Source of the DNA: a virus
IMG/VR virus record: IMGVR_UViG_3300025703_000003
Coordinates: 1-53,125 of that record
Direction: 5' to 3' (one strand)
Length of the DNA stretch: 53,125 nucleotides
Below the pieces are notes generated by a model, which saw only the letters and a list, made by a program, of their open reading frames with translations, did no database searches and was not told the DNA's origin. Below are positions 6,392 to 41,701 of this stretch, piece after piece. Numbering within the stretch: position 1 is the stretch's first letter; the number at the start of each line of letters is the position of its first letter. The translations under genes and the position numbers were made by a program.

Positions 6392-6973
6392 CTACACATG
6401 CGCGGCTCCGAACCACAGGGCCATCCGAGCCGGTACGATCATGCTCGCCGGTCGATCTGGAAAGAGCCCGAGACCCATGAGGACCATCGTACAATGAGTG
6501 CTGCAGATTATTGCATTGCCCCACGTACACGCCAACTTCGCGCCAGTGAGTCCGTCAGTGATTAGCGCGGGATATTCAAACCAGCCGTAATCAAGTCCCT
6601 GACACGACACGTCATTCGAGACGGCATTGGCTCTCAGTTCGTCGCTGACGTTGAAGTGAACTTTGGCATACAGGTGATGTTTGTAGTCGTAGAGTTGCCG
6701 ACGCTCGAAGCCCGCAAAACCCATCTCTGAGACTGCCGTGAGTCCGTCGATCGTCCCTCGAACGACCGCGGTGTGAGCGCACCAAGTGAAGCCTTTCAAG
6801 TCGGGCTCAGTAATAGTTAAAGCCTCTTGACCGAGCTTGATCGCGTCATCGGCCCACGTCCCGTGATCGATGAGAAGCAGGTCAGCGTCAGTCGCATCGG
6901 TACAGTTCTGACCCGCTTCGTACCACTCAATGGTGAATGACGGCACGACCAGAGTCATGCGATCGTTGGTCAC
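6392..6973 (-). CDS. Permuted papain-fold hydrolase (C92/YiiX-like)
   Basis: A 193-residue protein with the NlpC/P60-superfamily layout in permuted order: an early DADLLLIDHG strand, WCAHTAVVRG with the likely catalytic His at 67, a Glu at 83 (VSEMGF), and a late AIICSTHCTMVL helix with the likely nucleophile Cys at 157, followed by a Pro-containing end. This matches the YaeF/YiiX (peptidase C92) pattern of lipid- or peptide-bond hydrolases. It is ATGA-coupled to the glycosidase gene and is the last late gene. Likely role: cell-wall or envelope attack, or tail-associated. Confidence 0.65.
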   Translation of the reverse strand: MTNDRMTLVVPSFTIEWYEAGQNCTDATDADLLLIDHGTWADDAIKLGQEALTITEPDLKGFTWCAHTAVVRGTIDGLTAVSEMGFAGFERRQLYDYKHHLYAKVHFNVSDELRANAVSNDVSCQGLDYGWFEYPALITDGLTGAKLACTWGNAIICSTHCTMVLMGLGLFPDRPASMIVPARMALWFGAAHV

Positions 6974-8379
6974 GCGAAGAGCGCCTGCACGGCCGCAAAT
7001 GCGGGCTTCGGGTTCGTGTCGCCCTCACTCTGCATGCTGTGAACGATGCCCCACCAGCCGTCACCGCCGACTTGACCTTTGTTGGCGTAGTCCGCGAAGC
7101 AGTAGACGAAGAACGCTTCGATGAGCGCGATGCCAACGGTCAGTTGAATCAACGCGACCAGTTGCGTCGCTTGCGATGCCTCAGTCATCTCAGGCAAACC
7201 GTTTCCGCTATTTGCTGTGTTCGATGGGAAGCCACCCTCGGTGACCCACGACGGCTTCGTGACTCCAGCCGCCGCCATGAACGTCTGCGTCTGACCGGCG
7301 AGCGTCACAGCAGGCTCATTGCTTGGATAGGTGTAGAAGTGCCAGCCGTCGTAGTCGATGGACTGAGCGAAGTTTGGTAGTGCCTTCAACAGAGCGGCGC
7401 GCCACGTGACGTTCGTTTGATTCACGCCCGACACCGGCGCGATGTGGACGAAGCACGTCGGGTCGGCGGCCTTGCACTGCGCGTAGACGAGAGGCATTGC
7501 AATCGCGTAGTCACTCGCCAAGAAGGGTACTGACCCGTTCCACTGGGCGTAACCATTCGGCTCGTTCGGCCCTTCGATGTGTGCGCCCTTGACCTGTGAG
7601 CAGAACCACGCGCACGCCTCAGCGTATGCCTCGGGCGAGTACGGCAGACCTGGTGTGTAATTCCCAACGCCCGTTGTCGGTGGCGTTGCGGACGAGATGA
7701 ATCCATCGATGAGAAAGAGAACCGTAATCCCATACGTCGCAGCCAGCGTCTTGATTGCATTCGCCTTCGTAGCGATCGCCGCGTTGAACGTCCCATCGGC
7801 GTTGTAGAACGGAATCCCGCCTTCGGCATCCCACTGGTCGTGATAGTTCCACGTGATTTGAGTGCGAACGTACTTCACGCCGAGAGTCTTCATCTGGGCG
7901 AGAGAGGCCGCGTCCGTCCCGCCATTCATACCGAGCGCGAGAGGCGTGAGCGGCGTTACAGGAATTGTGCACGTAGTCGTCAATGTCAAGCCTTCGCCAT
8001 AAGTGAGCGTCAACGTATAGATGTAACCAGGAATCATGTAATCAAACGCAAACGAGCCCGCAAGAGGTTGGTTGACCAGCGGCCCTGTATTCCACGGTCC
8101 AGAATTGCTCGTGTCGGTGCCATCACGTGCGAGTTCAACGGGCTCAACACCTGACCAACTAACCGTGATTTCGTTCGCGCCGGTCTGCTTCGCAGTGAAT
8201 GTTGTCACGGGAGGTGGCGGCGGCGGTGTGACTCGCGTCACGTAGACAGTCGTCGGTGGAAAGTCCTGGTGTCTGGCGTCCCATGAGCGAACAGGCTTAC
8301 CGTTCAGTTCGGTCAGTGCGACCAAGTTCGCCTTAGTCAGTTGTGTTTGGGTTGGGCCTACTGTGGCTTCGTCGCTCAT
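6970..8379 (-). CDS. Clan-A glycoside hydrolase with FN3-like domain
   Basis: A 469-residue modular protein. Residues 17-50 are a module shared with the neighbouring papain-like protein. A run of prolines (52-57) leads to a fibronectin-III-like domain (about 58-145). Residues 146-469 form a TIM-barrel of the GH-A type: LGVKYVRTQITWNYHDQW, HIEGPNEPN with acid/base E273, and PSWVTEGGFPS with nucleophile E381. The exact GH family is uncertain (GH39/GH5-like). No signal peptide is seen, so export would be as part of the virion or through lysis. Confidence 0.8.
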   Translation of the reverse strand: MSDEATVGPTQTQLTKANLVALTELNGKPVRSWDARHQDFPPTTVYVTRVTPPPPPPVTTFTAKQTGANEITVSWSGVEPVELARDGTDTSNSGPWNTGPLVNQPLAGSFAFDYMIPGYIYTLTLTYGEGLTLTTTCTIPVTPLTPLALGMNGGTDAASLAQMKTLGVKYVRTQITWNYHDQWDAEGGIPFYNADGTFNAAIATKANAIKTLAATYGITVLFLIDGFISSATPPTTGVGNYTPGLPYSPEAYAEACAWFCSQVKGAHIEGPNEPNGYAQWNGSVPFLASDYAIAMPLVYAQCKAADPTCFVHIAPVSGVNQTNVTWRAALLKALPNFAQSIDYDGWHFYTYPSNEPAVTLAGQTQTFMAAAGVTKPSWVTEGGFPSNTANSGNGLPEMTEASQATQLVALIQLTVGIALIEAFFVYCFADYANKGQVGGDGWWGIVHSMQSEGDTNPKPAFAAVQALFA

Positions 8380-9452
8380 ATTTTTATGTACGCCCTGACT
8401 ATCTGTTGCAAGACCTGAAGGATCAGCTGCTCAGATTCACGGCTCAGCGCAAGGCCCATCGCCTTGTGAAGACCCTGCTCAAGTTCCTTGGCGCGCTTCT
8501 CGGCGTCCTCGAAAGTCTTGGATTCCTCTAGGCCGTGGAACTCGGTGCGCACCTTGTTGAGTATCTCTTCGAGAAACGACTCGTGGGCGGGGTTAGAGGG
8601 GGTATGAAGCGTCGGTGTCGCGTAGACCGTCGTCGGCGGGAAGTTCTGGTGCTTCGCGTCCCACGCACGAACGGGCTTGCCATTCATCTCCGTGACCGCG
8701 ATGAGGTTCTTCTCTTCCAGTAGTGCGGCTGAGGGCACCGGTACGGGTTTGCTCAACGGCACCAGAGAGGTCACGTCGCCTTGGCTGGCGAGCAGTGCGG
8801 CAAAAGTCTCCGTCGAGTAGTAGAAGTGCCCCTCCACGCCGTAGGACGTGCCCCAGGAGTTGACGAGGTGCCAGAGGTCGCTTGGGAGGTCGTAGCCGGT
8901 GCATTCGTACTCGTGACCGCCTCGAACGGTGGCTTCGCGAGCAATCGCAACAAGTCCACTCGCGTCAGGCGTGTCGAAACTGGTGTACCAGTCCGAGCCG
9001 ACCATGAACGGCCCCGACTGGATGGCGGTATGTGCGGCAGCGACCGAAAGGGCATGCAGATAGCCCGAGCAGAGACCCTTGGCCTGAGCGGCCTTCGCCA
9101 CTGAGAGACCCGACGAGCCATTGTCATTGGGTGGGTAGGGACCATCGCCGTCGATAGTCTCAGCCGCCGAATACAACGCCAGTGCCTCGTTCTCGTCGAG
9201 CACCAACCCAGCGGCGATGAGAGCCGCGAGGTCGCCGTCGTCGGGGTTTGTCCCAAGGATTCCAGTACAGGCGTTGCCCGTGCAAGATCCCACGTCGCCC
9301 TGGTTGAGCACCGGGATAACGCGGTCCCACTGGACGGTGACGATGGTGTCGGCCTCGGGGAGCACATACGCCAGCGAGCGTTCGTCGTGGTTGACATGCC
9401 TGCCCAATCTCTTTCCCTCGACGATGATTTCGGGAATTAGGCGAGTGGTCAT
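8376..9452 (-). CDS. Papain-like (C1) cysteine peptidase
   Basis: A 358-residue protein with the full C1 triad: Q51 and C57 in NQGDVGSCTGNA, H180 in GGHEYECTGYD, and N198 in NSWGTSYGVEGHFYYS. Residues 248-280 are the module shared with the glycosidase (AVTEMNGKPVRAWDAKH), and the last 75 residues are a charged coiled coil. C1 peptidases are unusual in phages. Placement between glycosidase and membrane genes suggests a virion-associated or lytic enzyme. Confidence 0.85.
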   Translation of the reverse strand: MTTRLIPEIIVEGKRLGRHVNHDERSLAYVLPEADTIVTVQWDRVIPVLNQGDVGSCTGNACTGILGTNPDDGDLAALIAAGLVLDENEALALYSAAETIDGDGPYPPNDNGSSGLSVAKAAQAKGLCSGYLHALSVAAAHTAIQSGPFMVGSDWYTSFDTPDASGLVAIAREATVRGGHEYECTGYDLPSDLWHLVNSWGTSYGVEGHFYYSTETFAALLASQGDVTSLVPLSKPVPVPSAALLEEKNLIAVTEMNGKPVRAWDAKHQNFPPTTVYATPTLHTPSNPAHESFLEEILNKVRTEFHGLEESKTFEDAEKRAKELEQGLHKAMGLALSRESEQLILQVLQQIVRAYIKI

Positions 9453-9964
9453 TGCTTCACTCTCTTCGCTAGTTGCTTGGCCGCAACTTTCTTCACGGCC
9501 TTCTTGGCTGGTGCGGCTTTCTTGACGACCTTTTTGGTGGTCGACTTCGTTTTCGGTATCGACGTGGTGACGTTCACTGGTCGTTTCAGCGCGTCCATGT
9601 GCGCCAGATGCTGAGCGTCCATCTTGTCGTGAAGCGCAACGTTCGCCGCCGCCGTGTTTCGCGTGAGCGAATCAATCTTCGCGTGCAGGTCATTCATTTT
9701 CTTACTCATCAACTCTCCTTTGTCTTGTTGGGATTCCAGCAGAGGTTTCACAACCTCGCGATGATGGCGTTCGAGTTCCTCGTGATGAATCTTGGCGAGT
9801 CCAGCCTTGACCCACTTTTTGAGGAACCACTGCCAGCAGATATTGATGACGACGAACACGAATACGCCCGCGACGATATTTCCCCACCAGACAATGGGGT
9901 GAGCCTGCGAGAAGAGGAAGTGTCGAGTGGCGTCAAAGTCATGCGCTATGTGATGAAGGAACAT
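9449..9964 (-). CDS. Membrane/coiled-coil protein with Lys-Ala tail
   Basis: A 171-residue protein with one membrane span (about residues 24-47), then a charged coiled coil, then a lysine-alanine tail (KKAAPAKKAVKKVAAKQ) like those of histone H1-type proteins. A near-perfect AAGGAG ribosome-binding site precedes an in-frame ATG at 9709 (MSKKMNDLHAK), so a soluble 85-residue form may also be made. It lies in the lysis island and could be a holin-associated or DNA/wall-binding protein. Confidence 0.75.
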   Translation of the reverse strand: MFLHHIAHDFDATRHFLFSQAHPIVWWGNIVAGVFVFVVINICWQWFLKKWVKAGLAKIHHEELERHHREVVKPLLESQQDKGELMSKKMNDLHAKIDSLTRNTAAANVALHDKMDAQHLAHMDALKRPVNVTTSIPKTKSTTKKVVKKAAPAKKAVKKVAAKQLAKRVKQ

Positions 9965-10004
9965 TTCCCCTCATGGTAGGACGCAGCGAAGCGCCAAACG
10001 CGGA

Positions 10005-10340
10005 TTAGGCGTTCTGTGTCGGGGCCTGTGGCGAGAGAATCAACTGCGTCGGTGCGCTTGCGCCCACATCGAAGACCTCTGAGCCCGTCCATGCCACGCC
10101 AGCGACGGTGAAGTCCACCGTGACCGTGACAGCCGCGTCGAGCGGGCCATCGGCAGTCGCGACGAAGCCCGACTGGTCGGCGGCTGGGGTGCAGGTGATC
10201 GCGGCAGGGTCCGAGGACGTCACTGTGAGACTTCCAGCATCGATCGTCGGGGCCGTGGTCGGGTTGTTGGCGGCGTCTTCGAAGACGAAGATCACGTCAG
10301 AATTCTGGTTGTCGGCTAGGCCGAATGGTACGTTACTCAT
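10005..10340 (-). CDS. Ig-like virion protein, 111 aa
   Basis: It starts MSNVPFGLADNQNSDVIF at 10340. The composition is rich in Thr, Val, Ala and Asp with regular beta-strand-like blocks (AAVTVTVDFTVAGVAW), typical of a single Ig-like or decoration domain. It is ATGA-coupled to the 54-residue gene upstream. A role as a small virion surface protein is an inference. Confidence 0.7.
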   Translation of the reverse strand: MSNVPFGLADNQNSDVIFVFEDAANNPTTAPTIDAGSLTVTSSDPAAITCTPAADQSGFVATADGPLDAAVTVTVDFTVAGVAWTGSEVFDVGASAPTQLILSPQAPTQNA

Positions 10341-10501
10341 TGATTCTCCTTAGGTGTTTGAGGCTCGAGAATTACTTTTACTGCGGGGTTCGATTCGTTC
10401 ACTACATGGATCGTAACGCTGACTTCGATTCCTTCGTCCAGCCGTCGAAGTATCGCTTCGAGAAGTTCTCTGGTACGTCGACGACCTTCGAGTTCGTCCA
10501 C
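10337..10501 (-). CDS. Small helical/strand protein, 54 aa
   Basis: It uses a GTG start at 10501, directly after the holin-like gene stop. It begins MDELEGRRRTRELLEAILRRL, a charged amphipathic helix, followed by VSVTIHVVNESNPAVKVILEP, two likely strands. An AAGGAG site for the next gene lies within its last codons, and its TGA overlaps the next ATG. Not recognised. Confidence 0.7.
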   Translation of the reverse strand: MDELEGRRRTRELLEAILRRLDEGIEVSVTIHVVNESNPAVKVILEPQTPKENQ

Positions 10502-10690
10502 CTAGAGCTCCGTGGCGAACCACAGGTGCAGGCAGACCGCGATAAGCCCAGCGCCGAGCCACACGGCCCAGTTGGTGATGAAGACCGTTCCTGAGGCCAC
10601 GATGATGAGCAGCGCGAAACACACGATCGCCAAGATGAGCCACAGCGGTAGTCGCCGCCTGCGCGTTGGGGCTGGTGAAGGGTTAGTCAT
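10502..10690 (-). CDS. Two-span membrane protein, holin candidate
   Basis: A 62-residue protein: a short N-terminus with four consecutive arginines (TRRRRLP), then two hydrophobic segments (LWLILAIVCFALLIIVAS and WAVWLGAGLIAVCLHLWF). Small size, two spans, a basic N-terminus and nearness to the NlpC/P60 gene fit a holin. AAGGAAAG precedes the ATG at 10690. Holins lack sequence motifs, so this rests on topology and position. Confidence 0.6.
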   Translation of the reverse strand: MTNPSPAPTRRRRLPLWLILAIVCFALLIIVASGTVFITNWAVWLGAGLIAVCLHLWFATEL

Positions 10691-10706
10691 AACTTTCCTT
10701 TCCTTT

Positions 10707-10757
10707 CTAGAGCCGGGTAACCACGACAACGAGGACGATTAAAAGTAGACCGAGCAC
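10707..10757 (-). CDS. Hydrophobic micro-ORF, 16 aa
   Basis: A GTG at 10757, preceded by AAGGTG, opens a 16-codon frame encoding MLGLLLIVLVVVVTRL. Every residue but the last three or so is hydrophobic, consistent with a single membrane span. It lies between two membrane protein genes of the lysis island. It could be a lysis regulator or chance, so confidence is limited. Confidence 0.4.
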   Translation of the reverse strand: MLGLLLIVLVVVVTRL

Positions 10758-10766
10758 GTCTTCACC

Positions 10767-11393
10767 TTACGCCCCTTCGTCGTCTTTCAGGCGTTCTTGC
10801 TCTTGCACGACGCTTTCTAGCAAATCACGCGAACTACCTCCGCCATCGGTGTGCATGTCCTTCACGAGAGCGGTGGTGTCCTTTTGAATCGCCCCTAGGA
10901 GTTCGGCCTGACGCGCCTCGCCTGCCTCGTGCTCCTGAGCAACGGCATCTCTAACTTCTGCGACCGAAGCAGGAACGGGCTTGCCGGCGAGTTCGCTGAC
11001 GGCTAACTCGATGCTCGAGACCGAGTTGTGGAGGCTCGCGACGTCGTCTTGAATCTTCAGTACCGTGCCGTTCTGTTGCCCGAAGCGAGTTGACATCGCG
11101 AGTACGGCTTCGGAGTTTTCCTTTGTCTCAGCGGTAGCGGCTCTCGTCGCTTCGATTGCAGTAGCGGCGTTGGCGTTGGCGTCTTTGATCTGTTCCATGA
11201 ACCCGGGCGGCGGGTCCGGTTCGAGGTCTGACTTCGGGCGCCCGACGATGAACTCTCTCAGTTCGTGGACGGACTTGAACTGCTTCGATAGATAAATACC
11301 AAGTCCCGAGAGAATCGCAATGATGACGCCATCGGCGATTTCCGTGAATGACGAGGGGTGCGGCGCGGCCTGTTGGACGATAACAGACAGCAC
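10767..11393 (-). CDS. Membrane-anchored coiled-coil protein
   Basis: A 208-residue protein with a single N-terminal membrane span (VIIAILSGLGIYLS, about residues 23-37) and a long Ala/Glu-rich coiled coil (from about residue 66), ending in a charged tail. It directly follows the NlpC/P60 gene. It resembles class II-type holin or spanin-like accessory proteins only in topology; no family is recognised. Confidence 0.7.
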   Translation of the reverse strand: MLSVIVQQAAPHPSSFTEIADGVIIAILSGLGIYLSKQFKSVHELREFIVGRPKSDLEPDPPPGFMEQIKDANANAATAIEATRAATAETKENSEAVLAMSTRFGQQNGTVLKIQDDVASLHNSVSSIELAVSELAGKPVPASVAEVRDAVAQEHEAGEARQAELLGAIQKDTTALVKDMHTDGGGSSRDLLESVVQEQERLKDDEGA

Positions 11394-11395
11394 GT

Positions 11396-12016
11396 CTACT
11401 TCTTTGGTGGGAAGCGAACGGCCTTCGCTCTCGTGTTGACTCGTAGGAACGTCCGCGGGCGAGTGTCGAGTCGTAGTGGCTGAATGAACGGCCCACCAGG
11501 TTGCCCGTGACTCACGACCATCGGTACGGGCTTCACTGCGACGACGATTGAAATGTGCTCATCACCGTTCGGTCCGTAGGCGGCGTAGTCACCGGGACGT
11601 AGTTCAGCAATGTCGGTGAATCGCCTTATCGCACTTCGCCAGAACGAACCGGAGTTTCCTGCGCCGCTGGCCCACGGGTAACCAGATGGACTGATGTCCA
11701 AGCCCGCGAGCGCGGCTGAAATCTCGCTCGACCCTGAGCAGTCTGTGATGACGACGTGCCGATTGCCCCACAGTTTCGTGTTCAACCAGTTGCGAGCGAA
11801 GGGTATCGGTCGAATCTCGTCGTAGTCCGTCGGCATCGTCGAGTGCTTGTGTCGCGCCCAGTACATCGCCCACTGCGCTATTGCTGGCCCGGCGTTGTGG
11901 TTGACCTTCGACTTTGCGAGATCGATCGACCTGCGAATCACCCCTTGAACAGGCGCGTCGAAATCTATCTTGCTCGGATTACTCGGGTCGGTTATCCGTG
12001 CGGTCATGGTCGACAT
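11396..12016 (-). CDS. NlpC/P60-type peptidoglycan hydrolase
   Basis: A 206-residue protein with the NlpC/P60 layout: nucleophile C93 in VITDCSGSSEIS, H154 in RPGDYAAYGPNGDEHISIVV, and a third polar residue in VVSHG (about 170). The N-terminal 80 residues may be a pre-domain. It would cleave peptide bonds in peptidoglycan and is the best endolysin candidate, given the adjacent holin-like genes. The ATG at 12007 (MTARITD), better spaced from AGGA, is an alternative start. Confidence 0.82.
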   Translation of the reverse strand: MSTMTARITDPSNPSKIDFDAPVQGVIRRSIDLAKSKVNHNAGPAIAQWAMYWARHKHSTMPTDYDEIRPIPFARNWLNTKLWGNRHVVITDCSGSSEISAALAGLDISPSGYPWASGAGNSGSFWRSAIRRFTDIAELRPGDYAAYGPNGDEHISIVVAVKPVPMVVSHGQPGGPFIQPLRLDTRPRTFLRVNTRAKAVRFPPKK

Positions 12017-12047: not shown

Positions 12048-12980
12048 TCACATCATCATGATTATCTGCACAGCGACCCCGTTAATCATGGTGTTCGTCG
12101 AAGCGTACGCAATCGCGACCCAGTGACCGAGGCCGTCCGTGGCGAGAGATTCCCAGTTCGCCGCTGACGGAGGAGCGCCGCCGAACGCCCACGTCACACC
12201 ATTGTCAGTGGAAATCATGGTGTAGGCCGAACCACCGTTAACCGCGACCCAGTTTCCTGCGCCGTCGGTGGTGAGTGATTGCCAATTATACGCCGCTGGA
12301 GGGGCGCCGCCCGCGCTCCACGTGACGCCGTTGTTGGAAGAAATCATGGTGTACGACGGGCCAATTCCAATCGAAACCGCGACCCAATGACCGGCACCGT
12401 CCGTGGCTAGTGAACGCCAGTAAGCCGATACCGGTGCGGCGCCGCCCGCCGACCAGGTGACGCCGTTGTCAGTGGAAATCATGGTGTTCGAAGAATTGGC
12501 AATCGCGACCCAATGACCGGCACCGTCCGTGGCGAGAGGGAACCAGGAATCCGATACCGGTGCGGCGCCGCCCGCCGACCAGGTGACGCCGTTGTCAGTG
12601 GAAATCATGGTGTTCGTCGAAGCGTACGCAATCGCGACCCAGTGACCGAGGCCGTCCGTGGCGAGAGATTCCCATTGATCTGCTGCCGGTGCAGCGCCGC
12701 CCGCCGACCAGGTGACGCCGTTGTTCGAGGAAATCATGGTGTTGGTCGAACTGTTCGCAATCGCGACCCAATGACCGGCACCGTCCGTGGCGAGAGATTG
12801 CCAGGAATCCGCTGACGGTGCCGCCCCTCCTGCACTCCACGTCACACCATTGTCAGTGGAAATCATGGTGTTCGTCGAAGAATTGGCAATCGCGACCCAG
12901 TTTCCTAGTCTATCGGTGGCGAGTGATTGCCAGTTATCCGATACCGGTGCTGCACCACCCGCTATCCACGAGATACTCAC
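12048..12980 (-). CDS. Seven-repeat propeller, putative receptor-binding protein
   Basis: A 310-residue protein of seven tandem repeats of about 42-44 residues with the core ISTDNGVTWSAGGAAP followed by W.SLATDGAGHWVAIA. The SxDxGxTW core is the Asp-box/BNR signature of sialidase-like propeller blades, and seven copies fit one closed seven-bladed propeller. The GTG start forms a GTGA overlap with the micro-ORF upstream. It lies at the end of the tail genes and likely binds a host surface sugar. Confidence 0.85.
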   Translation of the reverse strand: MSISWIAGGAAPVSDNWQSLATDRLGNWVAIANSSTNTMISTDNGVTWSAGGAAPSADSWQSLATDGAGHWVAIANSSTNTMISSNNGVTWSAGGAAPAADQWESLATDGLGHWVAIAYASTNTMISTDNGVTWSAGGAAPVSDSWFPLATDGAGHWVAIANSSNTMISTDNGVTWSAGGAAPVSAYWRSLATDGAGHWVAVSIGIGPSYTMISSNNGVTWSAGGAPPAAYNWQSLTTDGAGNWVAVNGGSAYTMISTDNGVTWAFGGAPPSAANWESLATDGLGHWVAIAYASTNTMINGVAVQIIMMM

Positions 12981-28652: not shown

Positions 28653-28798
28653 CAGTGGTTCCTCCATAGTCGGCGACGCTGTAAGACCGTCACCGGTACG
28701 CGTGAACGATCGACGAGTTTCTCGGCGAGTGCGGGCGTCATCTTGGCGTGACCCACGTAGTCGAGGAAGATCGCGACGGTCTGGTGTTCTCTAGCCAT
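28652..28798 (-). CDS. Hypothetical protein, 48 aa
   Basis: It starts MAREHQTVAIFLDYVGHAK at 28798, where the ATG shares its A with the TGA of the transglycosylase gene. It continues MTPALAEKLVDRSRVPVTVL and ends with a basic stretch. Not recognised. The one-base overlaps on both sides indicate coupled translation. Confidence 0.7.
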   Translation of the reverse strand: MAREHQTVAIFLDYVGHAKMTPALAEKLVDRSRVPVTVLQRRRLWRNH

Positions 28799-29211
28799 CA
28801 GAAGCACCCGTCGCCTTTCCACGGTCCGAAGCCGTTGAGCCCATCGTCATGATCTGCCCAGCGGATATTCATAGCAGCGATTGCTTGCTGTCGCGGTGTG
28901 GCCTGCCATACGTGCAGAGTCTTGACCCCAAAATGAGCGTGAAAGGTGGGGTCCTGTATTTGGAAGATGCCAGAGTTCGGCCCCATTGCCGGAGTGCGAT
29001 TGTCACCGAGATTCGGGTGCGTCCACGTCGAACGCGATTCGGCTCGGATAACACACGTCCACGTTGCCCACTCAGCCCGGTCATTACGCAGGAGCGGTTC
29101 GTACCACGGGATTCGATGAACCCTGGGGGTGGCGGCAGACGCCGTGACAGCGCCAAACGCCAGCGATGAAGCGACAATAAGGACGATCAAGATTCGGTTG
29201 ATTCGATTCAT
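28798..29211 (-). CDS. Secreted transglycosylase-like protein
   Basis: A 137-residue protein with a clear signal peptide (MNRINRILIVLIVASSLAFG, cleavage probably after ASA around residue 26). The rest has a lysozyme-like core: WTCVIRAESRSTW with likely catalytic Glu 58, NSGIFQIQDPTFHAHFG, and NIRWADHDDGLNGFGPW. This resembles the transglycosylase or Rpf-like fold found in Actinobacteria. AAAGG lies upstream of the ATG. It could cleave peptidoglycan from outside the membrane. Confidence 0.75.
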   Translation of the reverse strand: MNRINRILIVLIVASSLAFGAVTASAATPRVHRIPWYEPLLRNDRAEWATWTCVIRAESRSTWTHPNLGDNRTPAMGPNSGIFQIQDPTFHAHFGVKTLHVWQATPRQQAIAAMNIRWADHDDGLNGFGPWKGDGCF

Positions 29212-38642: not shown

Positions 38643-38771
38643 TTACAAGGTCTTTCGGAAGGTCGGCTTGACCTCGCGCAGGTCGGCGCCGCACATTCCG
38701 CAGAACCGCGGGCGACCGAGCAAGCCAATCCACAGCGGCCACGCTTTGTAGCAGTACGGGCAGACGATCAC
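38643..38771 (-). CDS. Zinc-ribbon protein, 42 aa
   Basis: It uses a GTG start at 38771 that overlaps the terminase stop as GTGA. CPYC at residues 4-7 and CGMC at 24-27 give a clear CxxC-x16-CxxC ribbon. It may act with the terminase by position, but this is an inference. The following gap (38577-38642) shows only the next ribosome-binding site. Confidence 0.75.
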   Translation of the reverse strand: MIVCPYCYKAWPLWIGLLGRPRFCGMCGADLREVKPTFRKTL

Positions 38772-41701
38772 GCGCTGCGCTTCTCGCGGATCCGTCTCGC
38801 GATTTCGCTCTCTTCGGCGGGTGGTGTCACACGAGGCTTGGGTCCGGTTCCTACTGGTGAAGAGATCGTCGTTGGTCCGGTTCCGTAGACCTCGTTGATG
38901 TAGTACGTCAATGCGTCAACGATGTCGTCATGTGCCCCGTGGTTGAAGGCCGTGCAATTATGAACCGTTCCTCCGGTAGTTACATAACTCTCATCTTCGT
39001 CAACGTGAAAGTTAATCACCTCGCATGGCCCTGTATCGGCCACGCTTCGAACCCAGAAACCGAGTAACTTGTCGCCGTCGTCATCAGCCCACACCTCCGT
39101 GGTGCGAGATTTTGCATTCATATCGACGGTGAATGTCGTGTGCCGACCTTGAATACGACGCTCGGGGTGAAATCGTGGAGTTGCTCGCGTCAATTTGGGC
39201 CACACTCCCATACGGGTGGCGATCAATCGCATCCCCCATGCAAGATGAGGCGAGACCGTAGTACCACGCCCATCGTGACCGTCTCCATCAAGCCATCCGT
39301 CAATAAGACCCTGATGAAATACAAGAGGTGCAGCCCATGCCCACTCAGGGATTCTCTTACCAAATGCCTTATGCCCAAAGGATTTAAACCAGCGCTCGAG
39401 ACGCGGAAGGCTCGCACTAACCACGGTGCAGTTTGGTGATCGAACTGCGGTGAATGTCGCTGATCGAATGCCAAATCTATCTAAGAGCAATGACTGAATC
39501 TCGTCGATAAAGGAAATCTCCGCTGCATTGAATGACCACTGGGCTCTTCCTGACGAATAACTGCCCTCAGCAAGCCACAGGCCACAGAATCGACCGAAAT
39601 CGTAATCAAGCTTCTGTGCATATTTCAACGATTGAGCGCGAACACTGTTGACGCTGATGTATTCACCGTCATCGGTCACAGTGAGACTTCGAGTTCCGGA
39701 TTTTGGCTCTCCTGGGTAGTCGTACCATTCACGAAGATCGATTGACTCCACCTCATAGTCCTCGTCGAGCACAGGAAAAGTAAGCGCGTCACTCATTTTT
39801 GGAGACGGCTGAAGCGTTCCATTCGATACTCTGCGAAACGCACGAGGTGAAAGTTCGCCAGCCGCTTTCCACGCAATCGCTTGGGCGAACTTGCCATTCG
39901 GTTCACTAGCGTTGCTCATCACCATAGAGAGGACTGGATGTTCCGGAGTAAGGCGCAAAGGATCAAGCGTCTTAGCAGTCAACTCGATAGTCGCAGGGGC
40001 TTGACGACGGCTGACTTCCAGAACTTCGCGGAATCGTCCCAGATGGGTTAAAACCCAGTCTCCCACTACAACTTCGCTTGCTTCGATTACACCTCGTCGT
40101 GTGAATATCATGGTATTTATACTAACGCACTCATCAATGAACTGTTCGACGTCAAAGGTCAACTCTGGTATGGCTTTTGATACCGCGACTGACGGGAGAT
40201 AGATGTTGCCGGAACGAATGATCGGGCTCGCGGCTTCCGCGCGGGCTTCCTTCGATGAGGTTGGGTTGACGGGTATCAATCCTGCAATTTCGTGACGTAG
40301 GGCTTTGTGAACCTCGGGACCGTTCGCCCTGTTCTCGAAGTACTTTCGCTTTGCCTGAGGGAACAGCATTGAGACTCGCCTCATGGCGTCAATCGTCCTC
40401 GGCAGGCTGAGTCTGTCGCGCACCTGATAGATGAGAAATGAGTCCGCGCCCTTCTTCGCCCAGACCTGACCGACAACGAAGTCGCTCGTCTTGGTCTCCT
40501 TGAAAGCGAAGTCCCAGGATTGGACGAGTTCATAGCCTCCTTCGACGTGGAACGCGCCGCCGTGCTGAACCCACATCACTCGCTCGTAGCGTTGCCACCA
40601 TTCACGCAGAAGGATCGCTCCGGTGCCCGGTGTCGGATTCCCCTGATACAGCGCGGACCAGTATCTTGCTGACGTCGCGTTCTTCGTCGCCTCCCAGTCA
40701 GCGTTCGTTCGACCACGAGCTGAGACCATGTACTCGCCTACTTCACGCCCAAGGATGTCACTCTCACCCTTGGCAGCGTTGAAGTCAGCCTGGGCGGGGA
40801 TGTTGACCACCGTCCAGTCGTCGTAGTCCTTCACCCCGCTCATGATGTCCTCATCACGCTTACGGATCAACTGCCCTGCAAGATCGTTGTCTGACCATCT
40901 CGTCATCGTCAACATTACGGGCGCCCACGGTGCCAAGCGAGGTCTGGCGGTCGTCTCCCACCACTCCATGTGCTGGCGCGATTGCAACGTTGAGTCTGCG
41001 GCTCGGATGTCCTTCACCGGGTCGTCGATGTTCATCAGGTCTGACGGGTGGCCGGTAAGACCACCGCCAATGCCGATCGCGTACACTCCACCACCGGTCT
41101 CGAGCATCCACCGGCCCATTGCCTTCTGGTCCCTCATCAGACGAAGCCCGATGTCGACGTTGTTCGAGGTGCCGTCAAAGAGTTCGATGTCGCTTCGCAC
41201 CTGATAACTGAACTGACCGGCGTTCACCCCGTCGTAGGAAACCAGCGTGATTCGAAGCGCCGGGTACTGACGTAGTAACCATTCAAGCCCGTAGCGACTT
41301 ACGCGGCTCGACTTCCCTTCTTGTGGGCTCATGCTCAGAATCAGGCGAGTGATGCCACGGCTCGGGATCTCTTCGGTCGCTCTCTCAATGGCGATCTTGT
41401 CGTTGACTCCTTGCGCTAGTAGTTCCTGCAACCGTCGACGTCGTGCGTACATGACCTCGATGGCCTGACTGATCTGCACGAGTTTCGAGTCGATTATCGT
41501 CAACGCAGGGGTTTGGACGGTGGCCGGGTCTAAAGAAACTGCCAGGTCACCGGGCGTCGGATACTCCATGATCCGCTGAATCCTGCGTGTCTCTACACGC
41601 ACTAATTCCTGTTCGTCGGGTCTCAGCGCGTTCCACTTGGCTCGACGTTCGGCCTCGGGGAGTTTGATGAACTCTCTCGCTGAGGGTGAGAGTAGTTTCA
41701 C
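38768..41701 (-). CDS. terL: Large terminase with intein
   Basis: A 977-residue precursor. The ATPase domain has a P-loop variant SPQEGKSS (about 124-131) and a Walker B-like LMNIDDP (about 222-228). The nuclease domain starts with VQSWDFAF (Asp 397) and ends with HDDIVDAL (about 924-931). An intein of 391 residues (525-915) splits the nuclease domain just before the last acidic motif. Removing it joins FDVEQFIDE to CTAFNHGAHDD and leaves a 586-residue terminase. The GTG start overlaps the upstream stop (GTGA). It packages DNA into the capsid. Confidence 0.93.
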   Translation of the reverse strand: MKLLSPSAREFIKLPEAERRAKWNALRPDEQELVRVETRRIQRIMEYPTPGDLAVSLDPATVQTPALTIIDSKLVQISQAIEVMYARRRRLQELLAQGVNDKIAIERATEEIPSRGITRLILSMSPQEGKSSRVSRYGLEWLLRQYPALRITLVSYDGVNAGQFSYQVRSDIELFDGTSNNVDIGLRLMRDQKAMGRWMLETGGGVYAIGIGGGLTGHPSDLMNIDDPVKDIRAADSTLQSRQHMEWWETTARPRLAPWAPVMLTMTRWSDNDLAGQLIRKRDEDIMSGVKDYDDWTVVNIPAQADFNAAKGESDILGREVGEYMVSARGRTNADWEATKNATSARYWSALYQGNPTPGTGAILLREWWQRYERVMWVQHGGAFHVEGGYELVQSWDFAFKETKTSDFVVGQVWAKKGADSFLIYQVRDRLSLPRTIDAMRRVSMLFPQAKRKYFENRANGPEVHKALRHEIAGLIPVNPTSSKEARAEAASPIIRSGNIYLPSVAVSKAIPELTFDVEQFIDECVSINTMIFTRRGVIEASEVVVGDWVLTHLGRFREVLEVSRRQAPATIELTAKTLDPLRLTPEHPVLSMVMSNASEPNGKFAQAIAWKAAGELSPRAFRRVSNGTLQPSPKMSDALTFPVLDEDYEVESIDLREWYDYPGEPKSGTRSLTVTDDGEYISVNSVRAQSLKYAQKLDYDFGRFCGLWLAEGSYSSGRAQWSFNAAEISFIDEIQSLLLDRFGIRSATFTAVRSPNCTVVSASLPRLERWFKSFGHKAFGKRIPEWAWAAPLVFHQGLIDGWLDGDGHDGRGTTVSPHLAWGMRLIATRMGVWPKLTRATPRFHPERRIQGRHTTFTVDMNAKSRTTEVWADDDGDKLLGFWVRSVADTGPCEVINFHVDEDESYVTTGGTVHNCTAFNHGAHDDIVDALTYYINEVYGTGPTTISSPVGTGPKPRVTPPAEESEIARRIREKRSA
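38957..40129 (-). mobile_element. Intein with LAGLIDADG homing endonuclease
   Basis: The intein starts with Cys 525 (CVSINTMIFTRRG), has a B-block-like DPLRLTPEHPVLS, and ends TGGTVHN before extein Cys 916. A dodecapeptide endonuclease region lies between, with FCGLWLAEGS and the second motif GLIDGWLDGDGH. All splicing residues expected (Cys 1, TxxH-like EHPV, terminal HN, +1 Cys) are present, so it should splice. Its base composition is lower in GC at the borders than the host gene. The site is a conserved nuclease motif, a typical intein target. Confidence 0.93.

What the first reader, a model, noticed from the sequence alone, without database searches (positions are those of the whole stretch)
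6392..12016. Hydrolase island with three unrelated papain-fold enzymes and a glycosidase
Seen: within 5.6 kb there are an NlpC/P60 enzyme (C93/H154), a C1 papain-like peptidase (C57/H180/N198), a clan-A glycosidase (E273/E381) and a C92-like permuted papain-fold protein (H67/C157), mixed with at least three membrane proteins. A fifth wall enzyme is at 28798-29211. Such a set is excessive for simple lysis. C1 peptidases are rare in phages. Inference: the host has a complex, protein- and glycan-covered envelope that must be breached from inside or at entry.
Basis: partly seen in the sequence, partly recalled or inferred. Interest (0 to 1): 0.7.

Follow-up and report, generated by a model that had tools for sequence, protein, structure and literature searches.

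The report
Enlarged phage lysis cassette (candidate)
A virus, probably of actinobacteria, carries right after its tail genes what looks like an enlarged cell-lysis cassette: a common phage protease, a probable wall peptidase, two enzymes of unnamed families and small membrane proteins, with a short tag shared by two of the enzymes.

Summary
Only the C1 peptidase passes a family cut-off. The others rest on motif order and profile comparison: C92-like (good), NlpC/P60 (fair), clan-A glycosidase (motifs only, family unknown).

C1 peptidases are not rare in phages: at least 484 relatives in viral contigs, and 46 of 49 annotated records are actinophages. In Gordonia and Arthrobacter phages they sit inside annotated lysis cassettes. 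Four hydrolases in one block is ordinary for actinophages. A lysis cassette is the best reading.

New here: (1) the last four genes (membrane protein, C1, glycosidase, C92-like) overlap by 4 bases each; (2) the C92-like family was found only in viral contigs (seven with the window), and in five of six relatives it follows a diverged C1-like gene, once with a small membrane gene between; (3) C1 and glycosidase share a 34-residue module kept in protein while silent codons changed. Lytic role, substrates and host are not shown.

The parts
11396..12016 (-). NlpC/P60-like endopeptidase candidate (C93, H154), 206 aa, no signal peptide seen
   Evidence: motifs DCSG / GD / H in register with an NlpC/P60 profile, 31.4 vs shuffle maximum 27.1; RipA/RipB best PDB matches E 0.18; no PF00877 match; positional equivalent in L005 is PF00877 E 2e-19
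10767..11393 (-). holin-like or coiled-coil membrane protein, 1 N-terminal TM segment, 208 aa
   Evidence: hydropathy
10502..10729 (-). small membrane protein, 2 TM segments, holin-like
   Evidence: hydropathy; relatives in L005 6649-6849 and L016 6623-6841 in the same kind of block
10005..10340 (-). Ig-like small protein, 111 aa, not a membrane protein
   Evidence: relatives directly after the C92-like gene in L016 and L017, and in L006
9449..9964 (-). membrane protein with 1 TM segment and charged tail; overlaps the C1 gene by ATGA
   Evidence: relative L005 6852-7202 E 4e-29
8376..9452 (-). C1 (papain-family) peptidase, Q51/C57/H180/N198, 358 aa
   Evidence: PF00112 24.8 bits, PHROG_16701 3e-38; catalytic residues invariant in 10 aligned proteins
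8607..8726 (-). C-terminal copy of the shared 34-40 aa module (C1 aa 243-282)
6970..8379 (-). clan GH-A-like glycosidase candidate: shared module, Pro-rich linker, Fn3-like stretch (by eye), catalytic region with E273 and E381
   Evidence: motif order; no family match
8227..8346 (-). N-terminal copy of the shared module (glycosidase aa 12-51)
6392..6973 (-). C92-like permuted papain-fold protein (H67 before C157), 193 aa
   Evidence: no family match
28798..29211 (-). SLT/Rpf-like small lysozyme candidate with secretion-signal-like N terminus, away from the cassette
   Evidence: translation; relative in L005 E 1.7e-4; SLT_3 E 0.07
12048..12980 (-). Asp-box (BNR) repeat protein, last tail-side gene before the cassette
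   Evidence: PF02012 E 1e-20

Best explanation
This is the phage's lysis cassette. The NlpC/P60-like enzyme acts as the lysin A type endolysin on the peptidoglycan stem peptide. The small membrane proteins act as holins or release partners. C1, the glycosidase and the C92-like enzyme are accessory release enzymes made together from an overlapping gene run and freed to the envelope when the membrane opens. The shared 34-residue module probably brings C1 and the glycosidase to the same target. Shown: genes, residues, gene overlaps, conserved neighbourhoods. Inferred: lytic function, order of action, substrates, role of the module.
For: Position between tail genes and the exonuclease/RecT genes. 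C1 relatives lie inside annotated lysis cassettes of Gordonia phages Forza, GMA2, Aleemily and Lilbeanie (two lysin A genes, a gene of about 123 aa, C1, holin, and lysin B in the last two) and next to a gene annotated as holin in Arthrobacter phage Mufasa8. Neighbours of C1 in viral contigs include endolysin PHROGs, GH25, transglycosylase, NLPC_P60 and Amidase_2. 4-base overlaps chain 9449-9964, C1, glycosidase and C92-like. In L005 the order NlpC/P60, membrane genes, relative of 9449-9964, C1-like, C92-like is repeated. C1-like enzymes are fused to hydrophobic two-segment domains in L003 and L016, and paired with such a gene in L018 and L042. No secretion signal is seen on the four cassette enzymes, as expected for holin-dependent release (inference).
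Against: In Streptomyces phages and a mycobacterial phage the C1 gene lies away from the lysis genes. Membrane genes are not enriched beside C1 across 62 dereplicated relatives (18% at the adjacent positions, about 7-22% further away). No relative has been tested for lysis. The NlpC-like gene is below family thresholds. The neighbour counts have no matched background.
Confidence: 0.62

Rival explanations
1. The enzymes are virion-borne and open the envelope at entry (tail-tip peptidase, glycosidase and permuted papain enzyme), and the shared module anchors C1 and the glycosidase to the tail.
For: The block follows the tail and Asp-box genes directly; a YiiX-like amidase is listed among the tail genes of Bacillus phage Izhevsk (PMC7685451); the glycosidase has an Fn3-like stretch and Pro-rich linker like some tail depolymerases (inference).
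Against: The closest annotated neighbourhoods of C1 are lysis cassettes; in L016, L017 and L006 the C92-like block lies beside the terminase, not inside tail genes.
Confidence: 0.22
2. C1 and C92-like act inside the cell on phage or host proteins (for example trimming the membrane partner or a holin), with no wall target.
For: 4-base overlap of C1 with the membrane-protein gene; fusions of C1-like domains to membrane segments; some C1 genes are far from lysis genes.
Against: The adjacent glycosidase sharing a module with C1 points to a target outside the cytoplasm; endolysin neighbours.
Confidence: 0.1
3. One reading: the set exists because the host has an unusual protein- and glycan-covered envelope that needs each enzyme. 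This is compatible with a lysis cassette and adds a claim about the host.
For: Several different hydrolase types in one block; no lysin B-like gene found in the window by similarity to two Gordonia lysin B proteins.
Against: Host unknown; similar enzyme numbers occur in phages of ordinary Gordonia hosts; no substrate evidence.
Confidence: 0.15

Closest known systems
Gordonia/Arthrobacter phage lysis cassettes with C1 cysteine protease (Forza, GMA2, Aleemily, Lilbeanie, Mufasa8)
   Same: C1 peptidase at 36-47% identity, placed with endolysin(s) and holin after the minor tail genes
   Different: No glycosidase with the module and no C92-like gene beside C1; two of them have lysin B; their C1 proteins lack the module
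Mycobacteriophage lysin A with N4 (RipA-like) or N5 (C39-like, papain family) peptidase domains (PMC3314691)
   Same: Papain-fold peptidases as endolysin activities; the NlpC-like protein's best PDB matches are RipA/RipB
   Different: Here each activity is a separate gene, and the NlpC-like match is weak
YiiX/YebB, peptidase family C92 (PF05708)
   Same: Permuted order, His first and then Cys in a CS motif, with colinear motifs
   Different: No Pfam match; found only in viral contigs, 193 aa, own conserved motifs (DHG, TWC.H, ERR, YGW)
Phage clan-A glycosidase-like proteins with EGPNEPN and TETGW-like motifs (L105, L107, L111, L112, L114-L120)
   Same: Acid/base and nucleophile motif pair in the same order
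   Different: No significant phmmer similarity to the window protein; the two tested have no Pfam family either

Membership tests
Peptidase C1 (PF00112) | Score above Pfam gathering cut-off | tested here: met
   24.8 vs 20.7 bits
Peptidase C1 (PF00112) | Catalytic Gln-Cys-His-Asn | tested here: met
   Q51, C57, H180, N198 invariant in 10 aligned proteins
Peptidase C1 (PF00112) | Proteolytic activity | not testable with these tools
   needs enzyme assay
Peptidase C92 (PF05708) | Score above Pfam gathering cut-off | tested here: not met
   no match in hmmscan or in the search of the record
Peptidase C92 (PF05708) | Permuted His-then-Cys order and colinear motifs with YiiX | tested here: met
   profile alignment 22.2 vs shuffle maximum 7.9, H67 and C157 on the YiiX H and C; so 'C92-like', not filed as a member
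Peptidase C92 (PF05708) | Papain-like fold | tested here: inconclusive
   AlphaFold model pLDDT 42.5
NlpC/P60 (PF00877) | Score above Pfam gathering cut-off | tested here: not met
NlpC/P60 (PF00877) | DCSG, GD and His motifs in order | tested here: met
   in-register alignment, 31.4 vs shuffle maximum 27.1
Glycosidase clan GH-A | Assigned GH family | tested here: not met
   no Pfam, NCBIfam, PHROG or PDB sequence match
Glycosidase clan GH-A | Acid/base N-E motif and nucleophile E motif in order | tested here: met
   E273 in GPNEPN, E381 in VTEGG, 108 residues apart
Glycosidase clan GH-A | TIM-barrel fold | tested here: inconclusive
   model pLDDT 40.1
Phage lysis cassette | Endolysin candidate with holin-like membrane genes in one run after tail genes | tested here: met
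Phage lysis cassette | Loss of function blocks lysis | not testable with these tools
   needs phage genetics

The most novel reading that the evidence does not exclude
A phage-only permuted papain enzyme and a C1-type peptidase form a conserved membrane-coupled release pair in actinophages, a lysis step different from lysin A, lysin B and spanins, to which this phage has added a glycosidase that carries the C1 enzyme's targeting module.
Probability: 0.2. Interest if true: 0.65.

Novelty: new variant of a known kind. Interest (0 to 1): 0.42.

Why it matters
If right, it adds two unnamed enzyme families and a C1-like plus C92-like gene pair to the parts list of actinophage lysis, and points to a role for the many unstudied phage C1 peptidases. 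The shared module suggests a new envelope- or virion-targeting tag that can be tested by fusing it to a reporter.

Tried and rejected
AlphaFold models of the C92-like protein (3 sequences, pLDDT 42.5) and of the glycosidase (1 sequence, pLDDT 40.1) were too poor for fold search, so none was run. Relatives of the glycosidase were not found in phages, viral contigs or genome contigs; a scan for its EGPNEPN motif found other phage glycosidase-like proteins without similarity to it beyond the motifs. Relatives of the NlpC-like protein and of 9449-9964 were not found in viral contigs by peptide patterns (the L005 relative of 9449-9964 came). A C92-like search in genome contigs found nothing. The idea that membrane genes generally flank C1 was rejected. 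Homology between the two-segment membrane tails of L003 and L016 was tested and not found; the L016/L018/L042 tail family is near C1 in only 1 of 62 dereplicated loci. The L005 NlpC tail resembles the shared module only loosely (29% identity) and was not counted as a copy. A profile test of the SLT candidate aligned only 11 columns and was not used. Family searches in kin genomes could not be run because the record is viral.

Full report
What is there. The window is a 53,125-base virus record with its main genes on the minus strand: terminase, portal, capsid, tail tape measure and tail genes, then the reported block, then exonuclease and RecT-type genes. In gene order the block is: Asp-box protein 12048-12980; NlpC/P60-like 11396-12016; membrane protein 10767-11393; membrane protein 10502-10729; Ig-like 10005-10340; membrane protein 9449-9964; C1 peptidase 8376-9452; glycosidase-like 6970-8379; C92-like 6392-6973. 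The last four overlap by ATGA, ATGA and GTGA.

How good each assignment is. C1: PF00112 at 24.8 bits against a cut-off of 20.7, PHROG_16701 at 3e-38, a solved-structure match to a bacterial cysteine protease (3ois, E 5e-6), and Gln, Cys, His and Asn invariant across ten aligned proteins. C92-like: no convincing library match, but a six-sequence profile aligns to six bacterial YiiX/YebB proteins with His and Cys in register at 22.2, against at most 7.9 in 40 column shuffles and 4.3 reversed; HHalign's own probability is only 17%, so I call it C92-like, not C92. NlpC/P60-like: no library match, best PDB matches are RipA and RipB at E 0.18, alignment to three NlpC/P60 proteins 31.4 against a shuffle maximum of 27.1; the gene at the same place in L005 is a clear NlpC/P60. 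Glycosidase: no family by any library or PDB sequence search; the motif string NEP, TE and KPAF occurs in one of 8581 open frames, and comparison with phage proteins carrying EGPNEPN scores above shuffles over short stretches (33.2 vs 20.9; 29.2 vs 21.9; one set had been picked by that motif), so clan GH-A is likely and the family unknown. 28798-29211 begins with a signal-like segment and has E58 and GIFQI as in SLT/Rpf enzymes.

Is the set unusual? Of 49 annotated phage records, 46 infect actinobacteria. In four Gordonia phages C1 lies between two endolysin genes and a holin, with lysin B further on in two; in Arthrobacter phage Mufasa8 it follows a gene annotated as holin. The BetterKatz paper describes a cysteine protease-like endolysin and a glycoside hydrolase in that Gordonia phage's lysis cassette (PMC4982276), and mycobacteriophage lysin A proteins contain RipA-like and C39-like domains (PMC3314691). 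Several papain-fold enzymes in one cassette are therefore expected. Against a universal lysis role, the C1 genes of Streptomyces phages Shaeky and Sycamore and of mycobacteriophage Indlovu lie elsewhere.

What is new. The C92-like family was found in six other viral contigs (L015 and L016 carry near-identical copies), and not among about 85,000 bacterial and archaeal genomes nor in 50,697 phage records, within the sensitivity of those scans. In L005, L015/L016 and L017 the gene directly before it, and in L018 the gene before an intervening 110-residue membrane gene, belongs to one diverged family. That family aligns to the C1 profile over the catalytic Cys, the His and the following tryptophan motif, 42.8 against a shuffle maximum of 25.6, HHalign probability 66%. 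L006 is the exception. In L016, L017 and L006 this block lies beside the terminase. So a C1-like enzyme plus a C92-like enzyme is a recurring pair; in the window the glycosidase lies between them. L016's C1-like protein has a two-segment membrane tail that is a separate gene in L018 (E about 1e-28) and has a weak relative after C1 in L042; L003's C1 protein has an unrelated hydrophobic tail.

The shared module. C1 residues 243-282 and glycosidase residues 12-51 are alike. In the 34-residue core 24 residues are identical, and 13 of those 24 use different codons. The protein sequence has thus been kept while silent positions changed, which argues for function and against a very recent copy. No other protein in the fetched loci carries it. 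I infer a targeting or anchoring module; nothing tests this. Other C1 relatives often have instead a Pro-rich linker and a short C-terminal part ending in W..KGL (27 of 62), so a variable C-terminal targeting part may be the rule.

Verdict. An enlarged lysis cassette of an actinophage type is the most likely reading (0.62), with virion-borne entry enzymes as the main rival. The finding is a new variant of a known kind.

Noticed in passing
window 38957-40129 (minus strand, inside terminase gene 38768-41701): The terminase large subunit appears to hold an intein of 391 residues (aa 525-915) that begins with Cys and ends with His-Asn before Cys, with LAGLIDADG-like motifs, next to the nuclease motif FNHGAHDD.
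   Followed up: partly
L016 8001-8699, L017 5912-6553 and the Ig-like proteins next to them: The C-terminal tails of the C92-like and Ig-like proteins share a short PT-x-I-x-[VI]TPG-x-P-x-x-N-like motif, twice in the L016 C92-like protein.
   Followed up: no
L025 7974-8720 and 8666-8893: The C-terminal part of this C1 peptidase is encoded in an overlapping downstream frame, suggesting a frameshift (programmed or a sequence error).
   Followed up: no
L105, L107, L111, L112, L114-L120: Phage contigs encode large clan-A glycosidase-like proteins with EGPNEPN and TETGW-like motifs; the two tested have no Pfam family.
   Followed up: partly
62 dereplicated C1 loci, for example L060, L083, L035: Many phage C1 peptidases end in a Pro-rich linker and a short part ending W..KGL, not found on other proteins of these loci except the split L025 case.
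   Followed up: partly
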